Assembly: GCA_949752735.1 (NCBI GenBank) | Contig: OX457037.1 | Location: 64,435,449 to 64,499,448 of the forward strand | Source of the DNA: Lumbricus terrestris | Lineage: Eukaryota > Annelida > Clitellata > Crassiclitellata > Lumbricidae | Reading direction: 5' to 3' | DNA: 64,000 bases | In this document: piece by piece, positions 32,472-61,139 of the stretch | How the letters are laid out: each line of letters begins with the position of its first letter | Numbering within the stretch: the first letter of the stretch is position 1 | Notes under the pieces: model-generated | What the model was told of the DNA's origin: nothing | What the model saw: only the letters and a program-made list of their open reading frames with translations | The model's database searches: none | Translations under genes and position numbers: made by a program

Positions 32472-32472
32472 A

Positions 32473-33065: not shown

Positions 33066-33125
33066 CTAAACTACGCATCGCTGTTGGGATTGTGTGCGGC
33101 TGCAGTATCACGCTAGACTGCGTCC

Positions 33126-33561
33126 GTGTGGGAGACTAAGCCTACGTCCAAGATGGACTGTCTTGTCCGACAAGGCCCTCACCTGAAGACAGCCCACCAT
33201 TTGAAACAGCTGTGTAGAATGGCAGAATGGAACCTCTTAACTTCTATCTTAGCGGACCAGGGCCGTGTTCTGAAACCGCTCCTAATCCAAACAGCAGGAA
33301 ATTCTATCATTTTCTCAAATTCTTCTGCGGTAATGCCATTTCTGGAAGGAATTCTCCCTCCATTTGAAGATGCCTAGATTAAACACTGGCCACTGCCTGT
33401 ATATCGGTCGCCCAGTCACTGTCGCCAGCGCAGAGCTCTACTGCCAATTGAAGACATCTGAGTCCACCATCTCAAAGGAGATGCTTGGTGGTCTTGCCCT
33501 TGTGAACAAAATCGAATGCATTGTATCTGACCATTATATTCATCGCTTTTTAATCAAATAG
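33126..33561 (+). pseudogene. Possible hAT transposase C-terminal remnant
   Basis: The frame at 33364-33561 reads RPVTVASAELYCQLKTSE then STISKEMLGGLALVN. This fits the hAT dimerisation-region pattern (PVT..AE..F..LK...RSTM..ERL.GLALL). The upstream frame (33126-33377) is offset by a frame change near 33370 and has no clear domain. Low-grade match judged by eye. Confidence 0.4.
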
Positions 33562-33596
33562 CAGCTAGGGACTTTCAGAAGCGATGCCAGTGCATG

Positions 33597-34733: not shown

Positions 34734-34741
34734 AGTGCATG

Positions 34742-35170
34742 CAATACCTAGAGAATAGGCAGGCTTTAAGATGAGAGAAAGATAACGAAAGACTACTATA
34801 ATAGAGAGAATGACAGAGCGAAGTGATGAGGGGGGAGTCCATTTCATAGGGAGGGACCTTTGCAGGCAAATGATAGGTATAATTGTGCCATGGCGGTCCT
34901 GACGCGGGGAACAAAGCCGTCGAGCCAATCGGAGACCTAAGAGGACGTAACGAAATGGCAAAAATGGAGTGAGTACTGGATCACAAAGATACTCCGGAGC
35001 AAGACCCAATTGGGACTTGACGTTCAGGGGTTGCTGTCCCCAGAAATGGCATTTCCAGCCGCTCGAACTATAGCCATGACAGTGCAGAATCGAGTTATGT
35101 TCGTCTTGGGCCCAGTCCATGATCGGGATAGTGCCGCTATGCATGGCCCTCCGAACCCTTCGGTAGGTCG
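34742..35170 (-). pseudogene. L2/CR1-type LINE ORF2 C-terminal fragment
   Basis: Minus-strand pieces in shifting frames: LGLAPEYLCDP, then LRLARRL, PRVRTAM and LKACLFSRY. The same order of motifs is seen in the LINE at 61.1 kb. Frameshifted and bounded by array C on one side and the hAT on the other. Confidence 0.65.
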
Positions 35171-35188
35171 GGCCTGTAGTTGAATGGG

Positions 35189-35462
35189 TTTTGTCCGGGA
35201 CATTTTGTCCGGGACATTTTGTCCGGAGACATTTTGTCCGGGGACTTTTTGTCCGGGGACATTTTGTCCGGGGACATTTTGTCCGGGGACATTTTGTCCG
35301 GGGACATTTTGTCCGGGGACATTTTGTCCGGGGACTTTTTGTCCGGGGACATTTTGTCCGGGGACATTTTGTCCGGGGACATTTTGTCCGGGGACTTTTT
35401 GTCCGGGGACATTTTGTCCGGGACATTTTGTCCGGGACATTTTGTCCGGGGACATTTTGTCC
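35189..35462 (-). repeat. Palindromic mini-repeat array C (GGACAAAATGTCCCC units, reverse)
   Basis: Eighteen whole units plus a part unit. On the minus strand the order of lengths is 15,14,14, thirteen 15s, 14,14. Most units are GGACAAAATGTCCCC, with three GGACAAAAAGTCCCC variants. The architecture matches array B. Confidence 0.95.
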
Positions 35463-35526
35463 GTCCACGGTACTTGATATATAGTTCCAGTAAGGTATGG
35501 TATAAAAGCTTCAATTTTTCAGTTGG

Positions 35527-35695
35527 TAGCACAATTCCAAAAAAATTAGCAATTGGGAGGGGACATTTCTTGAAGTCTTACACCATGTCTTTCAGCACTT
35601 ATATTATGAGAAATTTTTGGTGAGATGACAGCTCAAGGTATGAGCGGCCTGAAGTTTTTTTGGGGTGGGCCTCAGGTACCCTAGCGCCAGCACTG
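35527..35695 (-). mobile_element. Fragment of the CAGTGCCGGCGCTAG hAT family
   Basis: Reverse-oriented left end of the element seen at 19682 and 61902, ending GTACCCTAGCGCCAGCACTG. The other end is missing. Confidence 0.85.
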
Positions 35696-35723
35696 CACGT
35701 ACACGAGGAAGATGCACATGATT

Positions 35724-35724
<1 letters not shown>

Positions 35725-35756
<32 letters not shown>
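35725..35756. repeat. (AT)n microsatellite
   Basis: Pure AT dinucleotide run between the hAT fragment and the LINE fragment. Confidence 0.95.
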
Positions 35757-35758
<2 letters not shown>

Positions 35759-36520
35759 AATTGTAAGGCTGTCACTGAGAGTAAATCATTTATAAATATA
35801 CAATATAAATAACAAAGTTCCCAATATTGAACCTAGCACTTAAAGACTCGAATTACCTTATCAATTTTAAGTTCAGGAACTTCACATTTAACAGATAGAG
35901 AAGCTGAGGAAGAGTGGTTAACAGAAACATATTGCAACCTATGAGATGAGCTACGGAACCAATTTAGAGGTGAGCCTCGAATTCCATAATGCTCAAGCTT
36001 ATCTAGCAAAATCGTATGATTTCAAAGGCTTTAGCCAGATCTAGGAAAATCCCTATGGTCAGTTGATGCTCATCAATAGATTTGCTCATATTGTCTGTAA
36101 GCTGAAGGAGCGCCATATAAGTAGACAAGCTTTTTTTCTCAAACCAAAATGGCTATATACAAGCAAATCATTCAGAGTTATAAAACTAAGGAGCCTATTA
36201 TAAACAATTTTTTCAACAATCTTGGCAAAGTTGATCAGGAAAGACACCATCAATCAGTGATAGGTTAAAAAATCTCTGATAATACAGGTGACATTTCATG
36301 GGAACAATGTTTTAATATTAATATAGAAATGTTATCGAATACTTCACTGTGAGAATTTTCCAGGGAAGCTACAATATGGGTAATTTCCTGAGGTAAAATC
36401 TGGTTTTAAGAAATGGAATGAGGGAGTCTGGACTTTAAGTTGTCTGTGTGGCCTTCAGGAACTGACAAAATACTCTTGGCAAGCTGAGTACCGTCTCTTC
36501 AATTGACTTACTCAGAGGCG
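35757..36520 (-). pseudogene. LINE reverse transcriptase core fragment
   Basis: Minus-strand translation in several frames gives FLDLAKAFE (catalytic-Asp motif A), LEHYGIRGSPLNWF, and later a worn GxVLGxLLFxxYINDLL motif near 35800. This is the fingers/palm part of a non-LTR reverse transcriptase. It carries stops and frameshifts. It could be the upstream half of the LINE whose end lies at 31615-32471, split by later insertions, but this is unproven. Confidence 0.65.
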
Positions 36521-37204
36521 CTCCCAGCCTAACACTTGCAAATAAAAAGTACGATTTGAGCGACTTATAAAAAGTAGTCGCGTTCACCCTAAGCATCAAT
36601 CGCAAAGCTAATCCACAATCTAACAGGCGGCGCTGCTTTATAGAAGTGCGAGCTCGCGGAACAAAAAATTCTCCTCTGTCGAGACGGGCTGCGAGGTCAG
36701 AGGCAAAGATCAGACATGCACGCTGAAGCGCAATAAAGAAAGTACCGTTTATAGCGTATGGGTTTTGTTAACTGAAATAACATCTCATGAAATTAAATAG
36801 ACAAAAGCATTTCACGTTCGATTGGGGCACCAAAAATTTATTCGTCCATACAACTTCTATTCGACCAACGCTAAAAATCCAAACCCATACAATGGCGAAT
36901 AATTTAGAATGCTAAGAGAATATATAGATTGTGACATAAGATTTGCTGATCTGTCATACCTGCTTAATTCTGTAACCTATTATGCAACAAGTTTAAAGTA
37001 AGACACTGTGAGTGTTAAAAGTTAAAACATCTTCGCAGTTTCAAATTAAGAACAGACGTATGGTGATTTCCGCTCGACCGCTCGATAGAGAAAACATAGA
37101 CTTCATATTATTCGCACCATCATGGGATTGGAAGAAGGCAGTGACGTAGCTAGAAACCAAATTTAACCCCGGGCAGCAGATCAACTCAACCAAAAGAAAC
37201 ATTG
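36521..37204. other. No gene; worn repeats
   Basis: A patch at 36815-36885 has loosely repeated TTCGTCC / TTCGACC units recalling the palindromic arrays. Otherwise unassigned. Confidence 0.35.
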
Positions 37205-37455
37205 GTCATAAGTAATAATAATAATAACAATATCTTTTCTTTAATTAAACGCCTGCAAGACGCACTGCGCTTTACATTGACAAGTTATGCATTAATCTTA
37301 ATTAAACTTAACTATACTAACAGAACAGACAGCTTTGGAATTACACGGCGCTAATAGCAGCCTACACAGCGAATCCGCCCAACGGGGGCTCGAACTCACT
37401 ACCTCTCGCACTCTACGCCAGCGTGTTATCCATTGCACGACCGCTGCCACCTACC
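37205..37455 (-). mobile_element. tRNA-derived SINE, reverse orientation
   Basis: On the minus strand the 5' head has a box-A-like GCAATGG...GCGTAG region and box B GAGTTCGAGCCC, then a body with CTGTCTGTTC and AAGCGCAGTGCGTCTTGCAG, and a (TTA)n tail at the left end. The 24658-24792 fragment is a 5'-truncated copy. Confidence 0.8.
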
Positions 37456-37689
37456 TGAAAAATATTAGCATTAGCCTAACATATTAGCCTATATAACAGG
37501 CCCACATTAGAAACTGCGCAAAATGCAATCAATCTTCAGCTAGCTGAAATAGTTCGAACTATCAGGTCATGCATGCCCAGGTCATAAAGACTATAGGCCT
37601 AGTCTATAGCCTACTAAACGAGTAGCTTACGGTAAGAGAATAAACTTAGAAATGCCGAATTTTGATAGGCTATAGCTAGGCCTATGAGC

Positions 37690-38016
37690 TGTCCGGGTCC
37701 GAATTGTCCGGTCCGAATTGTCCGGTCCGAATTGTCCGGGTCCGAATTGTCCGGTCCGAATTGTCCGGGTCCGAATTGTCCGGTCCGAATTGTCCGGTCC
37801 GAATTGTCCGGGTCCGAATTGTCCGGTCCGAATTGTCCGGTCCGAATTGTCCGGGTCCGAATTGTCCGGGTCCGAATTGTCCGGGTCCGAATTGTCCGGT
37901 CCGAATTGTCCGGGTCCGAATTGTCCGGTCCGAATTGTCCGGGTCCGAATTGTCCGGGACGAATTGTCCGGTCCGAATTGTCCGGTCCGAATTGTCCGGG
38001 GACGAATTGTCCGGGA
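37690..38016 (-). repeat. Palindromic mini-repeat array D (GGACAATTCGGACC units, reverse)
   Basis: Twenty-three copies of GAATTGTCC. Read on the minus strand, unit lengths are 15,14,14,14,15,14,15,14,15,15,15,14,14,15,14,14, then 15,14,15,14,14,15. The first sixteen equal array A, including the unusual TCCCC joiner after the first unit. No common flanking sequence with array A. Confidence 0.95.
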
Positions 38017-38129
38017 ACCCAAGGTCATTCATATAAGCTAAGAATATTAACCTTAAATTTACGACACATAGCCTAATTATATTTTTATGACACCCTTAGA
38101 GCGGTTGAATTAACTTTCTATGTTTTTTT

Positions 38130-39317: not shown

Positions 39318-40187
39318 ATATGCGTACCGGGCAACGCAGCTTCTCTATGCCGTAGCTACTCCAATCACAACCTGGAACTATTCACCAACCTCTCCTCCAG
39401 GCCTCACCGGACATCGGCCACCCTCCAACAAACCAGTTGAAAAAACAACAGAAGCCTCTGATTAAGTCTATAGGCGCATAATTGTGTGTAACGTCACTTT
39501 CCTGGACAATCCATATAGTAATATATAAATCCACTGCTGCAGAGCCCAATAAGTGCAATAACGAATAGATGCCTGCATAATACAAATTATGTTTAGGTCT
39601 ACAGTGAATTTCTAGGTATTGATACGGCCATGCTTTTAATATGGTGCCCCTCGAGTGATATTACACATAGATTTCTACATTTAAGCTTTAGAATAATATT
39701 TATGTGCAGTTCGTCACAATGATCACGCGCTTACACGGTTTGTTGTTGGACCCAACGCAGTCGAATGACCATAGCTGTTTATAAATTTAACAATGGTGCA
39801 TAAAAGCTTGCAATAAAAAAACCGATAATGGTCATCACAAAACGGCCACTCGTGTATCGTAAAGGTAAATATAGTTCGGCAGGTGTAAGGACCGAACTCT
39901 TAGTTATGCTAATTGAATAGGCCTATATCAAAGTAGCCTATGCGTGATTAACAAAACAACATTATAGACAATACATCTACTAAACCTGACAGTTTTTTGC
40001 AACAAACATCGCTTGAAGATTGATATCGTGTCCAGGTTTACAACATTTCTACAAATTGTCTTTTCTTATTGCACTTACATAGGCATAGGCCTACTATATT
40101 TGACCTTGCTGGCTAAGAACTCGTTAGGCCTCGACCGATAGTGAAATATAAGCTCTATTGGTCATTATAATCAGCTCACATTAGAAA
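39318..40187. other. Upstream region of the B-box/NHL gene
   Basis: No recognised exon or repeat. Several TAGGCCTA motifs. The start codon at 40188 has AAA before it, a fair context. Promoter elements were not identifiable. Confidence 0.4.
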
Positions 40188-41325
40188 ATGACTGCGAAAG
40201 ACGACGTTGATTTAAAAAAGCAAGAATTTGACGACGCAACTAGCTGCTGTTTATCTACAGAAATTTTCACCGACTCGAAAACCTTGCCTTGTTTCGATAG
40301 AGTCTGCATTAGATGTCTCGATGAAAATAGACTAAAAATCAACACAATACATGCAGAAGAGATGCCTTGCCCAGTCTGTGGACGATCGTTCAATAATCCG
40401 CCAGTAGGATATCGTGGGCTGTCCAAGAATTCGTCCACGCAGAGCCTGATACAAGTGGTAAATGTTTCGGTCCAGTTTCAGTCAATATCCATCTGCGACG
40501 CCTGTGTAAAGGAAAATAAGGAAGAGACACTCAAGGAAATTGCACCAGTTGACACGTTTTGTGCTCATTGCAACCAAATGCTTTCCGAAGAATTCTGCGG
40601 ACAACACAGTCCGTTGAAATTGACGAAGAATCGCAAACTGATTCCATTTGCTGAACTTGAGGTTGGTCAAATCGCGACTGCAAATCCGACATCAAGCGTC
40701 TGTGAATTGCATGAGCAAAATGCTCTGAATGTCTATTGTACTGATTGCAGGACAGTTGTATGCGCCATCTGCTTCATAGACGACCACAGTAATCATAAAG
40801 GCTCACATGTCACGAAATTCGTGGATGGCTTTCGGAAACAGATTGAGAACATTGTTGAAGCAATAAACGATTGCAAGTCTAGAGTCGAGACAAGAAAGGC
40901 GGAACTCATGAAAGCAAAGAAAGACCTGCATGAAAGAGTTGAGAACTTAGAAAGTGATGTGGAGAAGAGAAAAGATGAATTCAAACAGTTGGCAGAGAAG
41001 CACGCGACTTCTCTTCTACAAAGACTCTACTCGATAAAGGAGAGCAAACTGAAAGAAATCGAAACTACATCAGACGACATTGACACTTATCTATCGAGTC
41101 TCGAAGCTCACAATTCTTACTGTCAAAATATGATGAGTAAAGGAACAGCTACCGACATATGTCTTGCATTTTTAAACTTATCTGCACGAGCGACTGAGTT
41201 GCAAGAACAATGCAAGCCTATAATCGAAGGAGCGATTAAGTCATTCAATTTTAGCCTAAGAAAATCAGAACTTGGCGAATTCGTAGAGGATGATGGCAGT
41301 GACAACTTGATTGGTGAAATTATTG
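40188..41325 (+). CDS. TRIM-like protein, exon 1: degenerate RING, B-boxes, coiled coil
   Basis: First coding exon of an 865-residue protein spliced from four phase-1 exons (40188-41325, 42045-42530, 43123-43227, 44781-45649). Residues 20-64 look like a RING finger (C20, C35, C40, C43, C61, C64), but the second Cys position is Ser23 and the usual His is Asp37, so two of eight zinc ligands are altered. A B-box1-like cluster (C103..C106, C125..C128, C137, H140) and a canonical B-box2 (C172-x2-H175, C184, C187, C192, C195, H200, H203/H207) follow, then a coiled coil (about 210-300). Donor: G-GTAAGT at 41326. TRIM proteins are often ubiquitin ligases or scaffolds in the cytoplasm. Here ligase activity is doubtful because of the RING changes. 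Confidence 0.88.
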
Positions 41326-42044
41326 GTAAGTCTTTGTTACACATTTAACAAAATCTGTTTCTATGCCCATAATCATGCTAAAGATTGAGTTAATCGTTAA
41401 ATGTGTGCTTTGAGCAACAAAGACTCATCCCCTAATCAGGCGCAAGAGATGATGCAGGAAATTAATGCGGAGGATGCTTGTATGATTCTACAGACAACAC
41501 CTTATGTTCACATGCATGAGTCATCACCTCGTTATACAATAATATATACACTTGTAGCATTACAAATTTCTCACATGCGCCTCCAGAATTTAATAAAATA
41601 GTTTGTGATGATAATTTATTCAAATGATGTACATTAGAGTCAATCTATCAGCAGGGTCATTCTCAAAAGCATAAACTGAATCACCGAACAAAATTCTTGT
41701 CCAAAACTGGGAATGGTGTAAATTTAGTCCACCGTTTGCAAATAACATCTACATGTAAGTTACTAGAGTCTGTTGACCTGGTTTTAGGACAAATTCAATG
41801 CAATACTCTCTGTAAGGCTAGCTAGGCCTACAGCCCTACATAGATCACAGATTATCTTTGCAATTGTTGGGTTTTTCGAAAATTACCTGGGGATTTGGGG
41901 AGTTCAACGCTTTAGATTTTTTAGGATTCCACAGTAAAGATTTCTTTTGAAAAATCAGCTCCACGTGGATTAAAGGGTGACACCCCAATTATTTGTCTAC
42001 AATTCTCATACTGGTCGTAATAATTGTAAGTATGTTATTATCAG

Positions 42045-42530
42045 AAGAACGTCAGTCGAAACCCGGGAGAAGAAGGAAACAAAGTCTACTAACAGAACAA
42101 AGTAACGAAATTAGTCGTTTGAAAGAAGAAATTGAAAGTGAGAAGATAAGTAGAGAGAAATTCATGCATGCAAACGAAGAGCTCAAAATTGATATAGAGA
42201 ATGAAGTACAGGCAAAAAGGGTTTTGACAGAAGAACTGATCAAGGAAAGAGCAACCAACGATGCACAAATAAAGAAGCTTGAGCAAGAGTTAGACAACAT
42301 TGAAAAAGCCTGCAACACACTTGAAGCCGCCAACAAGATGCTTAAGCAGGAACTGGATTCCAAGAACGATAGACTGCTAAAGGAACTCAACAACGAGAAA
42401 GTTGTCAACGGTTCCTTTCGAGCCAGTAACAACAAACTCGTGCACGATATGAACACGTATAAAGCAACACTCGGGACATTGGAAGACAACATCGCAACAC
42501 TCAAGCAGGAACTGGAGACAGTGAAAACAG
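42045..42530 (+). CDS. TRIM-like protein, exon 2: long coiled coil
   Basis: 162 codons between acceptor TTATTATCAG and donor GTGAAG, phase 1 at each end. After a basic KPGRRRK stretch, the whole exon is heptad-patterned and charged (SRLKEEIESEKISREK, KKLEQELDNIEKACNTLEAA, LKQELDSKNDRLLKELNNEK). It adds about 130 residues of rod to the coiled coil of exon 1, which is unusual for B-box/NHL proteins. The open frame extends left into the intron with no ATG, so the splice acceptor sets the start. Confidence 0.85.
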
Positions 42531-43122
42531 GTGAAGAAATTAATATGAATTAAATGATTTAGTTTTGTTCGAATTCAGGTTAATTACTTTTGTGACACAG
42601 TAACTATTATGCAGAAGGCACCAATCGCTGGTTGTATATAATGAAGCCATAGTGGACAGTAAGTTGCAGAAGTGCAGTGGAAGATAAAATGATAGGAAAT
42701 TCAGAAGTTCGTGTATAGTGAGCATGCAAAGTGAGGCAGGTAAATATGACTGTATGAATAAGGAGATTGATAGAACGCCAGAGACCGCAACAGTTATTTC
42801 CGTAGCTTCCCACCTAAAAAGAACGCACTATACAATGAAAATCTATCATGGTAACAGACACAATTCAGTATTGCCCCATCTTAAGTACGTACTCGAGCTC
42901 TGTATTCCTCTTTATTACTCAGTGGCCTGCAGAAGTTCAATCTTCATCTGGTTTCACTTGGTCCCGCTAACCCTATCCTCCATTCGACAGACCAAGGTCT
43001 ATAGGTCGTGTGACCCTCCACTTGCAATGTATACTCCATCTTGATTGCGATTGTTACGTAGCGACAGACTATAGCATTCTGAAAGTCGACAGGTGTGACG
43101 TCAGTGAGTGTTGTTATTACAG

Positions 43123-43227
43123 AAAACAGAAATACAATTCTGAACCTTGAAGAGAGACTGAAGCACGAGCAAGTGGAGAAGGAAAAGTTGACGATCGCAC
43201 ACGCAAAAGAGAAGAGAAGATTACTCG
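43123..43227 (+). CDS. TRIM-like protein, exon 3: short coiled coil
   Basis: 35 codons between GTTATTACAG and donor GTAAAA, phase 1 at both ends. Reads NLEERLKHEQVEKEKLTIAH then AKEKRRLL, continuing the heptad pattern of exon 2. Because its length is a multiple of three, it could be skipped without frame change. Confidence 0.78.
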
Positions 43228-43459
43228 GTAAAAGTAAAGTCTGTAGCCTACTTAGATAGGAGTCATAGAAAAAGCCTGATGGCTGAATATGGAATAATTT
43301 TCAAAAACTCAGCTTTTCAACATGTTCAGGTCATTCCAAATTGTGTATAATTGTTGTTATTTTCCCCCACTGGATACGCCCCAGGGTACGACAGCGACAA
43401 TATCGGATTTACTTATTTGGTTTTTTTATCCTGGGGACTACGGTTTGAAATGTTTTGGA

Positions 43460-43690
43460 GGATAATCGTAATCGTAATCTCGAGGCTTCTAGAGCGCCCA
43501 CAAAAGTCAAGTCGCGGGAACCAGCTTATTCACAGACGCTCAATCAAAACAAAATCGATAGGCAGCGGGTCAAGTCCGGAGAGTCAGGCAGGCAGATAGA
43601 TGGACGGCTAAGGTGGGTGATGTTTAGAGTTGAAATGGCGAGGGATGTGAGGAGAAGAGGAAGAATCAGGATAGGATTTTTGAAAGAGCA
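43460..43690. repeat. Interspersed repeat, inverted partner of 5.4-5.64 kb
   Basis: Lies in the last intron of the TRIM-like gene. Matches the reverse complement of 5405-5640. Family unknown. Confidence 0.7.
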
Positions 43691-44780
43691 ATGTTTTCAG
43701 TTTTGAGTGAAAGACCTGTGAGGAGATAGTGAGAGGTGGAGTTTTGGTATAGATTCATTACTTTATGGATGGGGATCTGAACTTCGAAAACAATTACTGC
43801 TCTCCTGTGCAAATAATGAGCTAGCTGTAATCTTTATCACTTTATTGTATTTTGTTAGCCATAAAACACGTACTTGTTAAACCTATAAGTAGACCAAAAT
43901 AATGTATGTCAATGCACGAGGTCGGTGAATGTCTTGCAACGTGATCGACGCATTTTTGGTTACAATGGCACTAAATACTCTGCGTGTCAATGGTCGTCAA
44001 GTGCATTTGACGCACTTTGACCTATGCCTACATCGTTTTGAGTCGATATTTTTTCTATTGTATTCTCGTTTAATCAAACGTCAAAGCGCCACTCGAAAGC
44101 CAAGTGCAGGGCGTCAGCTTAATAACGAGCGCTGCATCGAGTCAGAAGGGTTTCCAAAGAGTGGTTGAAAAGGGGTTCCTAGTCCAGGTTTCAGAAAGTT
44201 AGAACTTGGAACTTGTTGGATCAGGTGACTCGGTGTAAGAGTTGTTAAGAAGGTGAGATTTTACAATGTCATGTAGTTTCGAGATGAAAGTTCTGTGGTG
44301 ATGGCTAGATGGGTCTGAGGCAGAAGATGATGAATGATTGACAATGACGCAGAAGGGACGGAAATTCAGGAGGAAGATCGTTCCAGAAGCGTGGTGCTGT
44401 GTTGGACATGATTCGGTTGGAGAACTTGAGATAAGCAGTGATCGGGAGATTGGGCGCCCGTTGCTCCTTTAAACGCTGCTCCTTTAAACGCTGCTTATTA
44501 GCATGTAATCAGGTTAAGTCAAGTTTAGTATTGTATGACTTTGTTGTGCCTATATCTCTTTGTATTCTTATCTTGAAGTATCTCTCGTATACCTATCTCC
44601 CATGCGTTGATTTGTGTCAATTTCGTTGCCTGCATTGTCATCGCTATAGTGGTGTATCCACTTCAAGCAGTTAATTGCATGTGACAAGTGGACTTAAATT
44701 AGGTCAATCTCAGCATAAAGCGAAGTCTTGTAAATCAAATAATTTTAAAGTTGTGAATGGTGTTTTGCTTTCATTTTCAG
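43691..44780 (+). other. Last intron of the TRIM-like gene, rest
   Basis: Contains a repeated GCTCCTTTAAACGCT at about 44454-44485 and a block similar to 22.3 kb. No extra exon recognised. Confidence 0.45.
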
Positions 44781-45649
44781 CTCAACTTCGATGCAAATCC
44801 GACCTAACCTTAGTCAAGACGATCAGAGGAAAAGACGAAGACGACGATACGATGAAACCCATAATTGGTTTGACCATCGTGGACAACGAATTATTCGCCG
44901 TTAGAGACGAAAGCTCAGAAGTTGAAGTTTACGATTCGATGAAATTCAGTTTAAGTCGTCGATGGAAATTGGACGAACTAATTAATCCAAGGGACATAGT
45001 ATCCTGCAACAGAAATAAATGCATTTATATATTCAACTACAAAAACCACGTAGAGCCGAATGAAATCTTAAGAGTTGATTCTAATGGAAATATAATAAAT
45101 AAGTGGTCGACAGGAGGCGACTGGGGATGGGGTCTGTCTGTCACAGATGAGTCGAATATCATTTTGACTGTTTTTAACAGACACAAATTAAACGAATATT
45201 CGCCAGACGGGCAGTTGATTCGTGAAATAGATCTACTGGCCGACGCAGGTATTCGGTATCCAAACCATGCGATAAAACTGACAACCGGTGATTTTCTGAT
45301 CAGCCACGGCTCAACGAAAGATGATCTGCACAGAGTTTGCGTAGTGGATGCGGAGGGCAAACTTGAGAGGTCATTCGGTGGAAAACGTGGATCCAGAGTC
45401 GGACAACTGGATGTTCCGGTCTATTTGTTTGTCGATGGAACTGGATTCGTGATGGTCGCAGATCAGTTGAACCGTCGAGTCTTGTTATTGGATCCGGATC
45501 TGGAGTTTAGAAGAGAGGTTTTCCCGAAAGAGGACAGGAATGGATCGCTAGTTCCGTGGAGGATTCTTCTGGATGAGTCGAATGATCGACTCTTTGTGGC
45601 TGACAACGAATCAAACAATCAAAGGATTTTTGTTTTCGAGTTTAAATAA
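44781..45649 (+). CDS. TRIM-like protein, exon 4: NHL-type beta-propeller
   Basis: After TTCATTTTCAG, phase 1, about 288 residues to the TAA. Reads as a six-bladed NHL-like propeller with repeated blade patterns: NELFAVRDESSEVEVYD, PNEILRVDSNGNIINKW, HKLNEYSPDGQLIREID, HRVCVVDAEGKLERSFG, GFVMVADQLNRRVLLLD and DRLFVADNESNNQRIFVF. In TRIM-NHL proteins this domain binds partner proteins or RNA. The joined protein thus has the order RING-like, B-box1, B-box2, long coiled coil, NHL. Such genes are expanded in several marine invertebrates; this one has no paralogue in the window. Confidence 0.88.
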
Positions 45650-50017: not shown

Positions 50018-51118
<1,101 letters not shown>

Positions 51119-51829
51119 AGTAGTTGTAATAGTAATCGGTCTACCCCACCTTCCCCCACTAATGAGTAATCGTTCTACCCCACATCCCCCACCCACAATA
51201 ATGTAAGATTTCTACCCCACCTAAAAATAGATCTATGACGTCACTGGGTTAGTAGCGCAGCCACGCCCACTATAACTGGCAAGCCTCCAAATTGACACTT
51301 GACCTGTCAATCAATTATTTGTCTGTGTCTTTGTATGTGTGTCCGACTGTATGCATGATCGTGTCTTTGTATGTGTGTCCGACTGTGTCTGTATGAGTCT
51401 TTGCAGAATCCAAAGCTGTGTGCGGTCATGTATAACATGGACTAATCCATGTGCGCCGGGCAGCCGCAGACCTAACTCCTAACCAATAAAAATCTTCACA
51501 TGCAATTCTGTCGCCGCAGGCACAGTCATGTCAATCCAATTATTGTCCGTGTCATTGTAAGCATTATGCACTGGCATCGGAAACCGTTGTCACATGTGGT
51601 TTTAATATTAACAGTCTTTGAAACGCTCTCTCAACGGTATATTGGTGATTCTATCTCAACCCCCCAGGCAATAGTCACATGTGGTTTTAATATTAGCACT
51701 CTTTGAAATGCTCTCTGGTGTATTACTGTATATCAACGATAAATAGTGGTGGCAGTATTTGAATATTATAATTAAACCATTGTATGTGGCATTGAAAATT
51801 CCTTTAATTTAAGTATTTGTATATACGCA

Positions 51830-52265
51830 TGTACTGGTTCACATACATGAGAAATTTATCTTAAGTGAAAATTCTTAAATTTTCCAAAACAACTTTATTG
51901 TAAGTAGTTACATAACCACATGTTTTGGCTCACATGCATAAAAAATTTATCGTGAAAATTCTTAAATTTTTCAAAAGAGCTTTATTGTAAGTAGTTGCAT
52001 AGCCAAATGTTTTGGCTCACATGCATGAAAAATTTATCATAAGTGAAAATTCTTAAATTTTTCAAAAGAGCTTTATTGTAAGTAGTTGCATATCCATATG
52101 TTTTGGTTCACTTACATGAAAAATCTTGCACATGCAATCGATTTTTCAAAAGTCCTTTAATTTAAGTAGTTGTATATATGCACGCATTGGATCACATACA
52201 TAAAAATTTATCTTAAGTGAAAATTCTTAAATTTTTCAAAAGAGATTTATTGTAAGTACAAATCC
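51830..52265. repeat. Subterminal tandem repeat in the left arm
   Basis: About five ~85-110-bp units with TTCTTAAATTTTTCAAAAGA, TTATTGTAAGTAGTTG and TTTTGGCTCACATGCAT. Confidence 0.85.
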
Positions 52266-52289
52266 ATACATGCAGACTTACTTACTCAC

Positions 52290-54790
52290 CAAATGATAAC
52301 ACTTCAACAGATTTACACATGTGCATGCAAGCACATATTTCCAATTTCTTCACTCATTCAGTTCTTAATACTTGCATCTTCCAAAATCTCACGCATGCAA
52401 TTTCTACAATTCCATACCAACTTACTTACTTATTCACAAAATTTCAGCAATTCATCAGATTTACACATGCACATACATGGTCATATTTCTCATTTCTTCA
52501 AACCGTCAGTTCTTAATACTTGCGTCTTTCAAATTCTCAACCATGCAAATTCCACAATTTCACACCAACTTACTTACTTATTCACAAAATGTGAGCACTT
52601 CATCAGCTTTACACACGCTCATACATGGTCATATTTCTCATTTCTTCAAACCGTCAGTTCTTAATACTTGTGTCTTTCAAATTCTCAACCATGCAAATTC
52701 CACAATTCCATGCCAACTTACTTACTTATTCACAAAATGTCAGCAATTCGTCAGCTTTACACGTGCGCATACATGGTCATATTTCTCATTTCTTCATTCC
52801 TCCATTTCTTAATACTTGCATCTTTCAAATTCTCAACCATGTAATTTCTACAATTCCATACCAACTTACTTACTTATTCACAAAATTTCAGCAATTCATC
52901 AGCTTTACACGCGCACATACATGGTCATATTTCCATTTCTTCAACCCTCCAATTCTTAATACTTGTATCTTTCAAATTCTCAACCATACAAATTCGACAA
53001 TTTCATACCAACTTACATACTTATTCACAAAGTTTCAACAATTCGTCAGCTTTACACGTGCGCATACATGGTCATATTTCTCATTTCTTCATTCCTCCAT
53101 TTCTTAATACTTGCATCTTTCAAATTCTCAACCATGTAATTTCTACAATTCCATACCAACTTACTTACTTATTCACAAAATTTCAGCAATTCATCAGCTT
53201 TACACGCGCACATACATGGTCATATTTCCATTTCTTCAACCCTCCAATTCTTAATACTTGTATCTTTCAAATTCTCAACCATACAAATTCGACAATTTCA
53301 TACCAACTTACATACTTATTCACAAAGTTTCAACAATTCAACAGCTTTACACGTGCGCATACATGGTCATATTTCTCATTTCTTCATTCCTCCAATTCTT
53401 AATACTTGCATCTTTCAAATTCTCAACCATGTAATTTCTACAATTTCATACCAACTTACTTACTTATTCACAAAATTTCAGCACTTCAACAGCTTTACAT
53501 GTGCACGGACATGGTCATATTTCCATTTCTTCAATCCTCCAATTCTTAATACGTGCATCTTTCAAATTCTCAACCATGTAATTTCTACAATTTCATACCA
53601 AATTACTTACTTATTCACAAAATTTCAGCACTTCAACAGCTTTACATGTGCACGGACATGGTCATATTTCCATTTCTTCAATCCTCCAATTCTTAATACT
53701 TGCATCTTTCAAATTCTCAACCATGCAAATTCGACAATTTCACACCAACTTACTTACTTATTCACAATAAGTTCATCAATTCAACAACTTTACACATGCA
53801 CATGCATTATCATATTTCTCATTTCTTCAAACCGACAGTTCTTAATACTTGCATCTTTCAAATTCTCAACCGTGCAAAGTCCACAATTTCATACCAACTT
53901 ACTTACTTATTCACAAAATTTCAACAATTCAACAGCTTTACATATACACTATCCTGCACATATCTGTCATTTCTTCAAACCATCAGTTCTTCATATTGAC
54001 ATCTTTCACCATGTCAACGTTAGAAACTCTACAATTTCTCACATGCTTACTTACTTATTCACAAAAATGTCTACATGCCAAAGTTTTACACAAGTACAAG
54101 CATGCAATTGTTATTCATTTCTGCACTTCTTCAGTTCTTAATACTTGCATCTTTCAACATCTCAAACATGCAAATTCTGAAATTCCATGCATACTTACTT
54201 ACTTACTCACAAAATTTTTGCAATTCATTTGCTTTTCAATTGTACAAGCGTGCGCATATTTCTCATCTCTTCGAGCCTTCATCTCTTGATTCTCACGATT
54301 TTCAACATCTCAAGCTCATCATTCTACAATTTCTCAGCTACTTACTTACTTACTTGCATATGTTGTGCACACCAACAGCTTTACACACGTATATTCCTAC
54401 TCTTATTCTCAAATCTTCATTCCTTCAATTCATACTTTGGACATGTTTCAACTTCTAAATCGCATGCGGTTACAATTCTGCACACACTTGCTTACTCACT
54501 AGTATAAGTTTTACAACCAATCAGCTTTACATGTACAATTATTTCTAATTTCCCATTTCTTCAATACTTCAACTCTTACTTCTTACATGTTTCATTCCCA
54601 CAACATAACAATTCTGCTATTCCACATATACTTAGCTGCATACTTACTTACTTACTTGATGCACAGAACTCTTCAATTGCAAATTCAAGCGTTTGGCTCT
54701 CATTTGTTCAATTCTTCAACTATAACTCTTAATTCTTGCACGTTTCAACTCTACGACTTAGCAATTGCTCAGTTACTTACTTCTTGAAGT
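52290..54790. repeat. ~148-bp tandem array in the left arm
   Basis: Roughly seventeen diverging units marked by CTTACTTACTTATTCACAA (for example about 53459 and 53607) and TTCTTAATACTTGCATC. Within 52740-53340 two units form a ~297-bp higher-order pair that is repeated almost exactly. Non-coding despite a long run of open frames. Confidence 0.9.
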
Positions 54791-55999
54791 ATCAAAAAAT
54801 AAATAAATAAATTGAAGAGTAAGAATCATCATTTTTCTTCGCAAAGTTTCTAAGTCCATACATTTTCTGACACCGAAAGTTTCGAAGTTCCAAAATTTTC
54901 TCCATGTTCATAAAATTTTCTTCACAAATATTCTATGTTCAATCATTTTCTGTCACGAAAAAATTTCTAAGATCGAAAATTTCTTACTTGTTGACAAAAT
55001 TTTCTTCGCACGTGATGTATGAGGAGAATAAGGAAGTTGAAGAAGAGAACAGATATGAGGAGAATGTGAAGGATGAAGATGAGAAGAATATGGTCTTAGA
55101 CGTATGAATTCAAAGTTTCTAATTCTGACATGAAAAGTTTCTAAGTCCCAAAATTTCTTCCATTTCCACAAATTTTTCTTCGCACGAAGATGAGTATGAG
55201 GAGGAAGAGGAAGAAGATGATGATATGGGACTTAGAGGTATGAATTATTGCGATACATAGACGAATTAACGATATGCAAGGCGAATATTTTGGAATGCAC
55301 ATGTGCAAAGCAATGTTTTTGTGAATTTTCTACATTTAAAATGTCAAATGTTGCAGGAATAGTGTGACACATGATGCTCTCATTTGTTTGCATTACTTGT
55401 TTGCATTACTTCTTGAAGTATCAAAAAATTGAAGAGTAGTTACTTTACATTACTTTGTATGGAATCGCAAATTTCAGAGGCAACAGATGGTAAAGTTTGC
55501 AACTCTTAGTCATAAAACTTTTAGTTTGTCAACATATGTAAGTTTAGCTAAGTCAGCACTTTATGCAAGAGTATCGGCTTGCTTTAGCAAAGTCATATAG
55601 GATTGTGAGTTCTCACCTGATGGTACGAGTGCATGAAATTATGCTGCGCAAGTATGTTAGATACATGACTCATTCATTTTCGTTTGGTGAGGCGTATGCA
55701 ATTTTAGCTGAGTCATCAATTTTGCAAAAAGCATGCGTTTGAGTGAATAAAATAACAATGTTGGCTGGTTCAGTAATGCGAACTCTACACCATTTTAAGC
55801 TAAATGCATGTCATTGCAATTGTACGAGTTGCCACTTTAGCAGAAATTCGTGTGCGCAACAATTGCAATTATAACTCCCAACAGTTTTTTCACCAAGTAA
55901 AATCACGATCATACTTAGGAATTCATTGTTGTACGACTTGGTGGCACGCGAGTCTGATGCGGTGGACACACCTGTTCCGGCGGCGGCGGAGGTGTTTGC

Positions 56000-56135
56000 G
56001 ATCTGATCCGTTCCGTCTTTGACGCGCGCAAGTCAGTCGATCTTGCGCAGCTTCAACTCATACTCCACACTTCATACATTACAATTGCGCACGATCGGCT
56101 GACTTGCGCGTGTCAAAGACGGAACGGATCTAGAT
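56000..56135. other. Centre of the giant palindrome: GC-rich stem and 38-bp spacer
   Basis: GATCTTGCGC (ends 56048) pairs with GCGCACGATC (starts 56087) with mismatches, then a long GC-rich stem including GTCTTTGACGCGCGCAAGTC and a GGCGG/CCGCC tract. The spacer 56049-56086 is AT-rich and non-palindromic. Confidence 0.9.
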
Positions 56136-57345
56136 CGCAAACACCGCCGCCGCCGCCGGAACAGGTGTGTCCACCGCATCAGACTCGCGTGCCACCAAGT
56201 CGTACAACATTGAATTCCTAAGTATGATCGTGATTTTACTTGGTGAAAAAACTGTTGGGAGTTATAATTGCAATTGTTGCGCACACGAATTTCTGCTAAA
56301 GTGGCAACTCGTACAATTGCAATGACATGCATTTAGCTTAAAATGGTGTAGAGTTCGCATTACTGAACCAGCCAACATTGTTATTTTATTCACTCAAACG
56401 CATGCTTTTTGCAAAATTGATGACTCAGCTAAAATTGCATACGCCTCACCAAACGAAAATGAATGAGTCATGTATCTAACATACTTGCGCAGCATAATTT
56501 CATGCACTCGTACCATCAGGTGAGAACTCACAATCCTATATGACTTTGCTAAAGCAAACCGATACTCTTGCATAAAGTGCTGACTTAGCTAAACTTACAT
56601 ATGTTGACAAACTAAAAGTTTTATGACTAAGAGTTGCAAACTTTACCATTTGTTGCCTCTGAAATTTGCGATTCCATACAAAGTAATGTAAAGTAACTAC
56701 TCTTCAATTTTTTGATACTTCAAGAAGTAATGCAAACAAGTAATGCAAACAAATGAGAGCATCATGTGTCACACTATTCCTGCAACATTTGACATTTTAA
56801 ATGTAGAAAATTCACAAAAACATTGCTTTGCACAGGTGCATTCCAAAATATTCGCCTTGCATATCGTTAATTCGTCTATGTATCGCAATAATTCATACCT
56901 CTAAGTCCCATATCATCATCTTCTTCCTCTTCCTCCTCATACTCATCTTCGTGCGAAGAAAAATTTGTGGAAATGGAAGAAATTTTGGGACTTAGAAACT
57001 TTTCATGTCAGAATTAGAAACTTTGAATTCATACGTCTAAGACCATATTCTTCTCATCTTCATCCTTCACATTCTCCTCATATCTGTTCTCTTCTTCAAC
57101 TTCCTTATTCTCCTCATACATCACGTGCGAAGAAAATTTTGTCAACAAGTAAGAAATTTTCGATCTTAGAAATTTTTTCGTGACAGAAAATGATTGAACA
57201 TAGAATATTTGTGAAGAAAATTTTATGAACATGGAGAAAATTTTGGAACTTCGAAACTTTCGGTGTCAGAAAATGTATGGACTTAGAAACTTTGCGAAGA
57301 AAAATGATGATTCTTACTCTTCAATTTATTTATTTATTTTTTGAT

Positions 57346-59846
57346 ACTTCAAGAAGTAAGTAACTGAGCAATTGCTAAGTCGTAGAGTTGAAACGTGCAA
57401 GAATTAAGAGTTATAGTTGAAGAATTGAACAAATGAGAGCCAAACGCTTGAATTTGCAATTGAAGAGTTCTGTGCATCAAGTAAGTAAGTAAGTATGCAG
57501 CTAAGTATATGTGGAATAGCAGAATTGTTATGTTGTGGGAATGAAACATGTAAGAAGTAAGAGTTGAAGTATTGAAGAAATGGGAAATTAGAAATAATTG
57601 TACATGTAAAGCTGATTGGTTGTAAAACTTATACTAGTGAGTAAGCAAGTGTGTGCAGAATTGTAACCACATGCGATTTAGAAGTTGAAACATGTCCAAA
57701 GTATGAATTGAAGGAATGAAGATTTGAGAATAAGAGTAGGAATATACGTGTGTAAAGCTGTTGGTGTGCACAACATATGCAAGTAAGTAAGTAAGTAGCT
57801 GAGAAATTGTAGAATGATGAGCTTGAGATGTTGAAAATCGTGAGAATCAAGAGATGAAGGCTCGAAGAGATGAGAAATATGCGCACGCTTGTACAATTGA
57901 AAAGCAATTGAATTGCAAAAATTTTGTGAGTAAGTCAGTAAGTATGCATGGAATTTCAGAATTTGCATGTTTGAGATGTTGAAAGATGCAAGTATTAAGA
58001 ACTGAAGAAGTGCAGAAATGAATAACAATTGCATGCTTGTACTTGTGTAAAACTTTGGCATGTAGACATTTTTGTGAATAAGTAAGTAAGCATGTGAGAA
58101 ATTGTAGAGTTTCTAACGTTGACATGGTGAAAGATGTCAATATGAAGAACTGATGGTTTGAAGAAATGACAGATATGTGCAGGATAGTGTATATGTAAAG
58201 CTGTTGAATTGTTGAAATTTTGTGAATAAGTAAGTAAGTTGGTATGAAATTGTGGACTTTGCACGGTTGAGAATTTGAAAGATGCAAGTATTAAGAACTG
58301 TCGGTTTGAAGAAATGAGAAATATGATAATGCATGTGCATGTGTAAAGTTGTTGAATTGATGAACTTATTGTGAATAAGTAAGTAAGTTGGTGTGAAATT
58401 GTCGAATTTGCATGGTTGAGAATTTGAAAGATGCAAGTATTAAGAATTGGAGGATTGAAGAAATGGAAATATGACCATGTCCGTGCACATGTAAAGCTGT
58501 TGAAGTGCTGAAATTTTGTGAATAAGTAAGTAATTTGGTATGAAATTGTAGAAATTACATGGTTGAGAATTTGAAAGATGCACGTATTAAGAATTGGAGG
58601 ATTGAAGAAATGGAAATATGACCATGTCCGTGCACATGTAAAGCTGTTGAAGTGCTGAAATTTTGTGAATAAGTAAGTAAGTTGGTATGAAATTGTAGAA
58701 ATTACATGGTTGAGAATTTGAAAGATGCAAGTATTAAGAATTGGAGGAATGAAGAAATGAGAAATATGACCATGTATGCGCACGTGTAAAGCTGTTGAAT
58801 TGTTGAAACTTTGTGAATAAGTATGTAAGTTGGTATGAAATTGTCGAATTTGTATGGTTGAGAATTTGAAAGATACAAGTATTAAGAATTGGAGGGTTGA
58901 AGAAATGGAAATATGACCATGTATGTGCGCGTGTAAAGCTGATGAATTGCTGAAATTTTGTGAATAAGTAAGTAAGTTGGTATGGAATTGTAGAAATTAC
59001 ATGGTTGAGAATTTGAAAGATGCAAGTATTAAGAAATGGAGGAATGAAGAAATGAGAAATATGACCATGTATGCGCACGTGTAAAGCTGACGAATTGTTG
59101 AAACTTTGTGAATAAGTATGTAAGTTGGTATGAAATTGTCGAATTTGTATGGTTGAGAATTTGAAAGATACAAGTATTAAGAATTGGAGGGTTGAAGAAA
59201 TGGAAATATGACCATGTATGTGCGCGTGTAAAGCTGATGAATTGCTGAAATTTTGTGAATAAGTAAGTAAGTTGGTATGGAATTGTAGAAATTACATGGT
59301 TGAGAATTTGAAAGATGCAAGTATTAAGAAATGGAGGAATGAAGAAATGAGAAATATGACCATGTATGCGCACGTGTAAAGCTGACGAATTGCTGACATT
59401 TTGTGAATAAGTAAGTAAGTTGGCATGGAATTGTGGAATTTGCATGGTTGAGAATTTGAAAGACACAAGTATTAAGAACTGACGGTTTGAAGAAATGAGA
59501 AATATGACCATGTATGAGCGTGTGTAAAGCTGATGAAGTGCTCACATTTTGTGAATAAGTAAGTAAGTTGGTGTGAAATTGTGGAATTTGCATGGTTGAG
59601 AATTTGAAAGACGCAAGTATTAAGAACTGACGGTTTGAAGAAATGAGAAATATGACCATGTATGTGCATGTGTAAATCTGATGAATTGCTGAAATTTTGT
59701 GAATAAGTAAGTAAGTTGGTATGGAATTGTAGAAATTGCATGCGTGAGATTTTGGAAGATGCAAGTATTAAGAACTGAATGAGTGAAGAAATTGGAAATA
59801 TGTGCTTGCATGCACATGTGTAAATCTGTTGAAGTGTTATCATTTG
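57346..59846. repeat. ~148-bp tandem array in the right arm (mirror copy)
   Basis: Inverted image of 52290-54790, with the same order of unit variants and very few substitutions. Confidence 0.9.
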
Positions 59847-59870
59847 GTGAGTAAGTAAGTCTGCATGTAT

Positions 59871-60306
59871 GGATTTGTACTTACAATAAATCTCTTTTGA
59901 AAAATTTAAGAATTTTCACTTAAGATAAATTTTTATGTATGTGATCCAATGCGTGCATATATACAACTACTTAAATTAAAGGACTTTTGAAAAATCGATT
60001 GCATGTGCAAGATTTTTCATGTAAGTGAACCAAAACATATGGATATGCAACTACTTACAATAAAGCTCTTTTGAAAAATTTAAGAATTTTCACTTATGAT
60101 AAATTTTTCATGCATGTGAGCCAAAACATTTGGCTATGCAACTACTTACAATAAAGCTCTTTTGAAAAATTTAAGAATTTTCACGATAAATTTTTTATGC
60201 ATGTGAGCCAAAACATGTGGTTATGTAACTACTTACAATAAAGTTGTTTTGGAAAATTTAAGAATTTTCACTTAAGATAAATTTCTCATGTATGTGAACC
60301 AGTACA
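59871..60306. repeat. Subterminal tandem repeat in the right arm (mirror copy)
   Basis: Inverted image of 51830-52265. Confidence 0.85.
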
Positions 60307-61139
60307 TGCGTATATACAAATACTTAAATTAAAGGAATTTTCAATGCCACATACAATGGTTTAATTATAATATTCAAATACTGCCACCACTATTTATCGT
60401 TGATATACAGTAATACACCAGAGAGCATTTCAAAGAGTGCTAATATTAAAACCACATGTGACTATTGCCTGGGGGGTTGAGATAGAATCACCAATATACC
60501 GTTGAGAGAGCGTTTCAAAGACTGTTAATATTAAAACCACATGTGACAACGGTTTCCGATGCCAGTGCATAATGCTTACAATGACACGGACAATAATTGG
60601 ATTGACATGACTGTGCCTGCGGCGACAGAATTGCATGTGAAGATTTTTATTGGTTAGGAGTTAGGTCTGCGGCTGCCCGGCGCACATGGATTAGTCCATG
60701 TTATACATGACCGCACACAGCTTTGGATTCTGCAAAGACTCATACAGACACAGTCGGACACACATACAAAGACACGATCATGCATACAGTCGGACACACA
60801 TACAAAGACACAGACAAATAATTGATTGACAGGTCAAGTGTCAATTTGGAGGCTTGCCAGTTATAGTGGGCGTGGCTGCGCTACTAACCCAGTGACGTCA
60901 TAGATCTATTTTTAGGTGGGGTAGAAATCTTACATTATTGTGGGTGGGGGATGTGGGGTAGAACGATTACTCATTAGTGGGGGAAGGTGGGGTAGACCGA
61001 TTACTATTACAACTACTCACAGAGTTTCTGCAATGGCACGCTCCTCAGAGACACGTGTGTGTGTGTTTGTGTTTGCGCGTCTGTGTGTGGGCGCGCGAGC
61101 GTGCATGTGTATGCGTGTGTGTATGTGTTATACCCCACA

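What the first reader, a model, noticed from the sequence alone, without database searches (positions are those of the whole stretch)
51113..61023. A 9.9-kb near-perfect palindrome that looks like a single inserted element
Seen: two ~4.93-kb inverted arms around a 38-bp spacer, ends AGTAGTTG/CAACTACT, and an exact CACAGA repeat abutting both ends. A duplication or assembly fold-back would not create a target duplication at both outer edges. Known: Polinton/Maverick elements have 6-bp TSDs, AG-type termini and terminal inverted repeats, and replicate by protein priming. Inference: this may be a symmetric snap-back derivative in which one end of such an element was duplicated in inverted orientation, like the defective symmetric genomes known for protein-primed linear DNAs. 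No coding gene remains, so it would be a very large non-autonomous element made only of inverted repeats.
Basis: partly seen in the sequence, partly recalled or inferred. Interest (0 to 1): 0.9.

Follow-up and report, generated by a model that had tools for sequence, protein, structure and literature searches.

The report
Gene-less palindromic satellite of split Polintons
This 9.9-kb stretch of a probably animal genome is an almost perfect DNA palindrome without detectable genes, one of a family whose ends and 6-base insertion scars match those of virus-like Polinton elements in the same genome that carry predicted copying genes and predicted inserting and shell genes on separate pieces, and it likely spreads by borrowing the products of both.

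Summary
The palindrome is real and is one inserted element (window 51119-61017, 9,899 bp; arms 4,931/4,932 bp, 36-bp spacer, TSD CACAGA). It is not a one-off. In its own 1.06-Gb genome the arm end finds 21 further loci. Of 27 elements fetched at both ends, 26 begin AGTAGT and end ACTACT, 25 of them with a perfect 6-bp TSD: the Polinton/Maverick signature. Of the first 18, two carry genes; the other 16 look gene-less (15 are 8.4-9.9 kb; 13 shown to have inverted arms meeting at a centre). Fourteen loci share the same core, so one founder palindrome multiplied as a palindrome. Arms are near-identical within a copy though copies differ, but some differences within 75 bp of the loop are inherited from copy to copy. 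The two gene-carriers have the same kind of ends and TSDs: a 10.3-kb element with a predicted DNA polymerase and a PC4-like protein, and a 9.6-kb element with predicted integrase, ATPase, protease and capsid-like genes. Neither holds any of the other's genes. Best reading: a palindromic, non-autonomous Polinton moved in trans by a Polinton split over two elements. Trans-mobilisation is inferred.

The parts
51113..51118 (+). left target-site duplication CACAGA
   Evidence: 6-bp TSD in 25 of 26 elements
51119..56049 (+). left arm, 4,931 bp
51119..51126 (+). terminus AGTAGTTG; AGTAGT at both ends of 26 of 27 elements fetched at both ends
51127..51220 (+). subterminal direct repeats GTAATCG(G/T)TCTACCCCAC at 51132, 51166 and (3 mismatches) 51203
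   Evidence: 6 matches in the window, all in the two ends; 0.08 expected
51236..51243 (+). TGACGTCA in a conserved subterminal block, present in 21 of 22 family ends aligned
   Evidence: alignment; sequence; likeness to a CRE promoter site is recalled
51802..52258 (+). 91-bp tandem array (5.2 copies); also matched by the terminal repeat of the integrase-type relative
52276..54352 (+). 148-bp tandem array (14.1 copies); units 2-11 are 84-100% alike, the outermost and the three innermost 69-81% like the others
56005..56049 (+). left side of the core stem, with loop-near differences from the right side that other copies share
56050..56085 (.). 36-bp spacer (loop)
56086..56131 (-). right side of the core stem
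56086..61017 (-). right arm, 4,932 bp
57784..59860 (-). mirrored 148-bp tandem array
59878..60334 (-). mirrored 91-bp tandem array
61018..61023 (+). right target-site duplication CACAGA

Best explanation
The element is a 9.9-kb palindrome without detectable genes, with Polinton-type ends and TSD, that likely multiplies as a satellite of a Polinton whose predicted genes appear divided between two separately inserted ~10-kb elements with the same kind of ends. Shown: ends, TSDs, family, shared core, palindromic copies, gene content (by homology) of one complete element of each gene-carrying type. Inferred: (1) the polymerase of the replication-type element starts protein-primed synthesis at the AGTAGT ends of the palindrome; (2) the integrase of the other type inserts the copy with a 6-bp TSD; (3) the founder formed when a replicating single strand folded back at the core stem and copied one arm into its mirror image; (4) the same self-primed copying, or mismatch repair in the hairpin, keeps making the arms identical and spares the stem next to the loop, where old differences persist.
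For: AGTAGT...ACTACT and a perfect 6-bp TSD: 18 of 18 and 17 of 18 elements, then 8 of 9 and 8 of 9 (the ninth, C4:36.12 Mb, had no AGTAGT in the fetched stretch, so its TSD was not tested). Paired inverted ends 5.9-10.3 kb apart at 18 loci. The core finds 14 loci at 97-100% identity, each read on both strands over the core. Loop-near A/G at position 12 and the 1-bp indel at 45 are shared, in the same phase to the loop, by 9 of 9 copies compared; T/G at 59 by 7 of 9 (C4 has T/A, C6a no difference) (C18a dropped, stretch too short). Within-copy arm differences over 2,040 bp: 0, 0, 1, 3; between copies 7-28 (four copies). In the window's copy all 11 substitutions lie in the inner 1.85 kb (KS p 1.1e-4). 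Relatives with the same kind of ends and TSD: C7:42753424-42763757 (10,334 bp) has a 1,112-aa open frame matching a phage DNA-polymerase family (E 1.1e-15) and a PC4 protein (E 1e-18); C2:78753274-78762893 (9,620 bp) has an rve+chromo integrase, A32-type ATPase, adenovirus-type protease, RING and a double-jelly-roll-like protein. Neither shows any of the other's proteins at E<=1. End sharing by subfamily over 150 bp: palindromes C19 and C4 with the polymerase element C7 (1.00, 0.99); C6b, C18b, C8b with the integrase element C5:26.1 (0.99, 0.99, 0.97). The first 45 bp of polymerase element C1:84.16 and integrase element C5:22.46 are identical, and palindrome C2b shows the same 45.
Against: No mobilisation was observed. 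The window copy's own subfamily ends (WIN, C9a, C6a: identical over 150 bp) have no gene-carrying partner among the elements examined; the nearest is 0.87 (C12, content unread). The inner arm (148-bp array and inward) was not found in the interiors of the two gene-carrying elements. The double-jelly-roll match is below Pfam's cut-off, and Pfam gave no polymerase match for the 1,112-aa frame; only PHROGs did. The polymerase and integrase searches scored 41 of 1,631 and 113 of 3,379 candidates, so a single element with both modules may exist. The eight substitutions of the window copy outside the 45-bp stem also crowd toward the centre (KS p 0.0013), which stem-priming alone does not explain. 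Three of 16 (C8b, C18b, C6b) have arm sequence at both ends and at the mid-point, but their centres were not read; no gene-less copy but the window's was read in full. Several TSDs lie in simple repeats (GATGAT, TACATA, TACGTA), where chance matches are easier.
Confidence: 0.8

Rival explanations
1. Internal-deletion derivative: a Polinton with terminal repeats of about 4.9 kb lost its whole interior, leaving 36 bp; no snap-back was involved. It would still be a non-autonomous Polinton moved in trans.
For: A centre made of two repeats and a short leftover looks the same; the two gene-carrying relatives do have terminal repeats of ~0.8 and ~0.9 kb, and one shares the 91-bp array with the arm.
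Against: No element with a 4.9-kb repeat and a gene-carrying interior was seen among those read; the 148-bp array and inner arm are absent from the interiors of the two gene-carrying elements. Within the 145-200 bp compared on each side, the shared arm differences lie within 75 bp of the loop, as expected if that stem primed the copying.
Confidence: 0.2
2. The gene split is decay: ordinary single-piece Polintons with the same ends drive the palindromes, and C7 and C2:78.75 Mb are deletion products.
For: Intact vertebrate Mavericks are 12.7-24.6 kb with both modules (PMC8097293); 1,631 polymerase and 3,379 integrase candidate places leave room for such elements. The integrase match of one integrase-type element (C6:48.6 Mb) has a stop inside.
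Against: 37 of 41 listed polymerase and 106 of 113 listed integrase matches show no stop; sizes cluster (two polymerase-type 10.33-10.36 kb; four integrase-type 9.36-9.63 kb with both ends and TSD read); the gene sets of C7 and C2:78.75 Mb are complementary; none of 41 listed polymerase places has a listed integrase within 100 kb (lists incomplete).
Confidence: 0.2
3. A Foldback-type DNA transposon (Mutator or P superfamily) with long, internally repetitive inverted repeats.
For: Anatomy is alike: long inverted arms with tandem arrays (Tetris TIRs to 1,735 bp with ~220-bp repeats, PMC4079207, passages). A MULE transposase between inverted arrays does occur in this window.
Against: Foldbacks have other TSDs (Tetris 8-10 bp; Tm1 9 bp); here 0 of 18 match at 7 bp (at C18b, in a GAT repeat, the 9 bases on each side are also equal). 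The two relatives read in full carry polymerase and integrase, and no MULE or P transposase was recognised in them.
Confidence: 0.02
4. Assembly fold-back or a chimeric join of two copies.
For: Long near-identical inverted arms are a known trap for assemblers (recalled).
Against: Symmetry stops at TSD-flanked edges; 18 loci on 10 contigs show paired inverted ends, 17 of 18 with matching 6-bp TSDs.
Confidence: 0.01

Closest known systems
Polinton/Maverick self-synthesizing transposons (polintoviruses)
   Same: 6-bp TSD, 5'-(AGT)2...(ACT)2-3' ends as published for vertebrate Mavericks (PMC8097293, passages and section 7), terminal inverted repeats; relatives here carry a DNA polymerase, rve integrase, A32-type ATPase, adenovirus-type protease and capsid-like genes.
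   Different: Intact vertebrate Mavericks are 12.7-24.6 kb with all modules in one element and TIRs of 46-1,447 bp; here 4.93-kb arms and no genes, and gene-carrying relatives of 9.4-10.4 kb, the two read in full having the modules apart.
Truncated endogenous mavirus-like elements (EMALEs) of Cafeteria with regenerated TIRs (PMC8547959, passages and section 10)
   Same: Short derivatives in which, as the authors say, terminal inverted repeats must have regenerated after truncation.
   Different: Those are truncated elements with ordinary TIRs; here the inverted end makes up the whole element and has multiplied. TSDs there are mostly 3-5 bp.
Foldback-like Tetris and Galileo of Drosophila (PMC4079207, PMC3573991; passages)
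   Same: Long inverted arms with internal tandem arrays; Tetris repeats seeded a satellite DNA.
   Different: 8-10 bp and 7 bp TSDs, arms up to about 1.7 kb; Galileo has a P-type transposase.
Bidnaviridae and defective symmetric genomes of protein-primed linear DNAs (recalled, no call)
   Same: Bipartite genome with the polymerase on its own segment; symmetric snap-back molecules.
   Different: Viruses or plasmids outside the chromosome; here each component is an inserted, TSD-flanked element.

Membership tests
Polinton/Maverick | 6-bp target-site duplication | tested here: met
   25 of 26 elements tested perfect (C8a 5 of 6 bases); 0 of 18 match at 7 bp
Polinton/Maverick | (AGT)2...(ACT)2 end motif | tested here: met
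   26 of 27 elements fetched at both ends; C4:36.12 Mb had none in the fetched stretch
Polinton/Maverick | terminal inverted repeats | tested here: met
   arms of 4,931/4,932 bp; ~810 and ~915 bp in the two gene-carrying relatives
[quoted passage not shown]
   absent from the palindrome; a DNA polymerase frame is present in the relative C7. Filed as non-autonomous, not as a full Polinton
Polinton/Maverick | own rve integrase, ATPase, protease, capsid genes | tested here: not met
   absent from the palindrome; present in the relative C2:78.75 Mb
Polinton/Maverick | replicates by protein priming | not testable with these tools
   needs DNA from cells
Foldback / Mutator-like | 8-10 bp target-site duplication | tested here: not met
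   TSD is 6 bp
Foldback / Mutator-like | long inverted repeats with tandem arrays | tested here: met
Foldback / Mutator-like | MULE-type transposase between the ends of a family member | tested here: inconclusive
   none recognised among the frames of C7 and C2:78.75 Mb scanned with Pfam; not every frame was scanned and other members were not read in full

The most novel reading that the evidence does not exclude
A segmented Polinton living in the chromosomes: a replication segment (polymerase + PC4-like protein, 10.3 kb), an integration-and-capsid segment (9.4-9.6 kb) and a gene-less palindromic segment (mostly 8.4-9.9 kb), each flanked by its own 6-bp TSD, share ends that change together by subfamily. 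The palindrome is a heritable defective-interfering genome whose second arm is rebuilt from the first by self-priming at its loop in each round of spread; the near-equal sizes hint at a shared packaging limit.
Probability: 0.5. Interest if true: 0.95.

Novelty: new variant of a known kind. Interest (0 to 1): 0.88.

Why it matters
Very long, near-perfect palindromes are expected to be unstable (recalled), yet here they are the inherited and multiplying form of a mobile element. If they replicate through protein-primed hairpins, their arms record the copying: identical arms with a preserved stem at the loop. A Polinton divided over two elements would show how a virus-like transposon becomes multipartite while staying inside chromosomes, and would give a natural system in which helper and satellite share ends and can be tracked by subfamily.

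Tried and rejected
Artefact of assembly: rejected by TSDs and by 18 paired loci. 9-bp TSD / Mutator reading: open from the window alone, rejected by the other copies. Polinton gene remnants in the arm: none found. Window arm repeat frame as a protein: no homologue. Viral contigs and phages: no match. Rfam at gathering threshold: no match in the window. PDB by sequence with the polymerase: only a FYVE-type zinc finger. A blind 200-kb sample (20 stretches within the first 190 kb of two contigs) held no arm match. The 'closest other copy' column is unsound (free end gaps allowed short alignments) and was replaced; only its own-arm column and printed end sequences are used. Waiting scripts: and part of 133. 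A capsid-protein survey of the genome did not complete. In the listings of searches I saw no title or abstract start about palindromic Polintons. Papers opened but not leaned on: PMC5225508, PMC6431247, PMC2836005, PMC4046053 (passages), PMC1978519 (abstract).
Full report
What is there. The element proper is 51119-61017 (9,899 bp). Its arms (51119-56049 and 56086-61017) align over 4,931 positions with 11 substitutions and one 1-bp indel around a 36-bp spacer. Outside the arms symmetry stops at once, and CACAGA stands on both sides. Each arm, from its end inward, has two or three subterminal repeats, a 91-bp tandem array, a 148-bp array of 14 units, an 84-bp repeat and an AT-rich inner part that turns GC-richer near the centre. 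The two arms carry the 148-bp array without a gap between them although its units differ by up to 31%, so one arm was copied en bloc from the other, or the two have been made alike since. No gene was found.

It is a family. The window lies in a genome of 1,056,305,194 bases in 331 contigs (species not identified; taken for an animal from gene content and homologues). The first 588 bp find 66 matches, with 40 of 273 candidates scored: the window's copy and 21 other loci, 17 of them as inverted pairs 5.9-10.3 kb apart. I fetched both ends of the 17 pairs. With the window this makes 18 elements: 18 of 18 begin AGTAGT and end ACTACT, 17 of 18 have a perfect 6-bp TSD (C8a: 5 of 6 bases), none matches at 7 bp, and the TSD sequences all differ. 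A few TSDs lie in simple repeats, where a match is easier; at C18b the nine bases on each side are equal too. A second set of nine (ends) gave 8 with AGTAGT ends, all 8 with perfect TSDs; the ninth (C4:36.12 Mb) had no AGTAGT in the stretch fetched and its TSD was not tested. The ambiguity between a 6- and a 9-bp TSD at the window copy is thereby settled. Of the 18, two carry genes (below). The other 16 have no listed polymerase or integrase match within 20 kb, but only parts of them were read. Thirteen of the 16 show inverted arms meeting at a centre: WIN, C9a, C6a, C10, C1a, C9b, C1b, C4, C8a, C19, C2c, C18a (core), C2b; C19 and C2c are less regular. C8b, C18b and C6b have arm sequence at the mid-point, centre not read.

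Polinton-type ends. In vertebrate Mavericks the commonest end motif is 5'-(AGT)2...(ACT)2-3' with 6-bp TSDs (PMC8097293, passages and section 7). Foldback-like elements have other TSDs: Tetris 8-10 bp (PMC4079207, passages), Tm1 9 bp (PMC3169594, passages), Galileo 7 bp (PMC3573991, passages).

One founder palindrome. The core (window 55940-56210) finds 14 loci at 97-100% identity and more at 70-86%; at each of the 14 the core reads on both strands, as a palindrome does; four of the 14 were not in the end search (40 of 82 candidates scored). The spacer has the same 36 bases in eight of the ten loci examined, one change in C9a and a small insertion at its edge in C1b. Next to the loop the two arms differ, and some of these differences are inherited: A/G at arm position 12 and a 1-bp indel at 45 in 9 of 9 copies compared, T/G at 59 in 7 of 9 (C18a too short; beyond ~70-100 bp the two arms of C4 and C8a no longer align). 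Further out the arms of one copy are almost identical while copies differ: 0, 0, 1 and 3 differences in 2,040 bp within WIN, C9a, C6a and C10 against 7-28 between them; 5 differences in 2,690 positions within the 18 elements over their first 140-150 bp, while ends of different elements fall to 0.55 identity. In the window copy all 11 differences lie in the inner 1.85 kb (KS p 1.1e-4); the eight outside the stem also crowd inward (p 0.0013), which remains unexplained. So palindromes descend from palindromes, and the outer arms are repeatedly made alike while the stem at the loop is spared. The core folds as a 49-pair stem (z -14.8). Not every palindrome keeps this core: C2b is a palindrome (2,114 bp of inverted arm at 100%) that the core search did not list.

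Gene-carrying relatives. C7:42753424-42763757 (10,334 bp, TSD CATGTC, terminal repeats ~810 bp at 91.6%) holds a 1,112-aa open frame that matches a phage DNA-polymerase family (phrog_1907, E 1.1e-15, residues 437-1055) with an endonuclease-VII-like finger, and a 190-aa PC4-type protein (E 1e-18). Pfam found no polymerase match; the motifs KLMNNSVYGK and TDTDS in the frame are recalled as family-B motifs. C2:78753274-78762893 (9,620 bp, TSD GCATAC, terminal repeats ~915 bp at 99%) holds an rve integrase with chromodomain (E 4.3e-12, 3.8e-8), a Pox_A32-type ATPase (1.3e-5), an adenovirus-type protease (4.7e-5), a RING protein (1.5e-11), a double-jelly-roll-like protein (0.0033, below cut-off), and two related proteins (42.6% alike) that I take for minor capsid proteins from recall. 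With all ten proteins as queries, none of the eight of the second element is found in C7, neither of the two of C7 in the second, and none in the palindrome, at E<=1. Both elements were read over their whole length in pieces.

The split recurs in part. A second polymerase-type element (C1:84159552-84169912, 10,361 bp) and three more integrase-type elements (C5:26114720-26124351, 9,632; C6:48608506-48618072, 9,567, one stop in its integrase; C5:22460363-22469721, 9,359) have both ends and perfect TSDs; their interiors were not read. The nearest listed integrase to any of the 41 listed polymerase matches is over 100 kb away, but only 41 of 1,631 and 113 of 3,379 candidates were scored, so this is weak for the genome at large. 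In the lists 37 of 41 polymerase and 106 of 113 integrase matches show no stop.

Ends go together. Palindromes C19 and C4 share 100% and 99% of their first 150 bp with polymerase element C7; C6b, C18b and C8b share 97-99% with integrase element C5:26.1; palindrome C2c shares 94% (140 bp) with integrase element C2:78.75. Polymerase element C1:84.16 and integrase element C5:22.46 have identical first 45 bp, and palindrome C2b shows the same 45. The window's own subfamily (WIN, C9a, C6a) has no gene-carrying partner among those seen.

How it likely works. Inferred, step by step: polymerase from replication-type elements primes at AGTAGT ends; the integrase of the other type inserts copies, leaving 6-bp TSDs; a displaced strand of the palindrome folds into a 4.9-kb hairpin; if one arm is lost or damaged, the core stem primes copying of the remaining arm, which yields identical arms outside the stem and keeps old differences inside it. 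Mismatch repair in the hairpin would act the same way. Virophage relatives of Polintons have regrown terminal repeats after truncation (EMALEs, PMC8547959, passages and section 10). The founder may have been a snap-back or an internal deletion; the data do not decide.

A parallel in the same window. 2872-3862 is a small palindrome made from one end of a Tc1-like transposon (arms 446 bp aligned, 14 differences, 94-bp middle; DDE_3 E 1.6e-4, below cut-off). One-end inverted duplication therefore also happened to a cut-and-paste element here; palindrome birth does not by itself need protein priming.

Verdict. Real and not ordinary: a multiplying family of palindromic Polinton-type elements without detectable genes, with gene-carrying relatives that, where read, divide the Polinton gene set. 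Membership by ends and TSD is shown; trans-mobilisation and the generality of the split are not.

Noticed in passing
window 2872-3862: Palindrome made of one inverted-duplicated end of a Tc1-like transposon: both arms carry the transposase C-terminus, TA at both sides.
   Followed up: partly
window 28282-38021: Inverted arrays of a 14-bp unit enclosing a FLYWCH+MULE transposase frame (30079-31431, minus strand); flanks share GGTCATT. Best hit with a named organism is Sinanodonta woodiana (63% over 66% of the query).
   Followed up: partly
window 32473-35463: Foldback-like element with inverted arrays of a 15-bp unit and a 9-bp direct repeat GTACTTGAT around it, lying inside the MULE element.
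   Followed up: partly
window 40185-45649: B-box (TRIM-like) gene piece followed by a 324-aa frame that looks like an NHL/beta-propeller part (recalled; no Pfam match for the second).
   Followed up: partly
window 297-761: Fragment of a rhodopsin-family receptor gene (Pfam 7tm_1).
   Followed up: no
genome G000: The polymerase family is very numerous and looks young: 1,631 candidate places, 37 of the 41 scored without a stop inside the match.
   Followed up: partly
L084:357-3692 and L090:824-1393: The polymerase frame carries an endonuclease-VII/FYVE-like zinc finger, and a two-stretch PC4-like protein, perhaps a single-strand binder, sits in the same element.
   Followed up: no
C12:37912877-37923200 and C15:26660159-26670252: Two further elements with these ends and perfect TSDs, 10.3 and 10.1 kb, whose content was not read; the first has the size of the polymerase type.
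   Followed up: no
L011 and L013 (first 50 kb of contig C2): Window repeats match both stretches at a constant offset of 4,949 bases with the same identities, which suggests a duplicated segment near the contig end.
   Followed up: no
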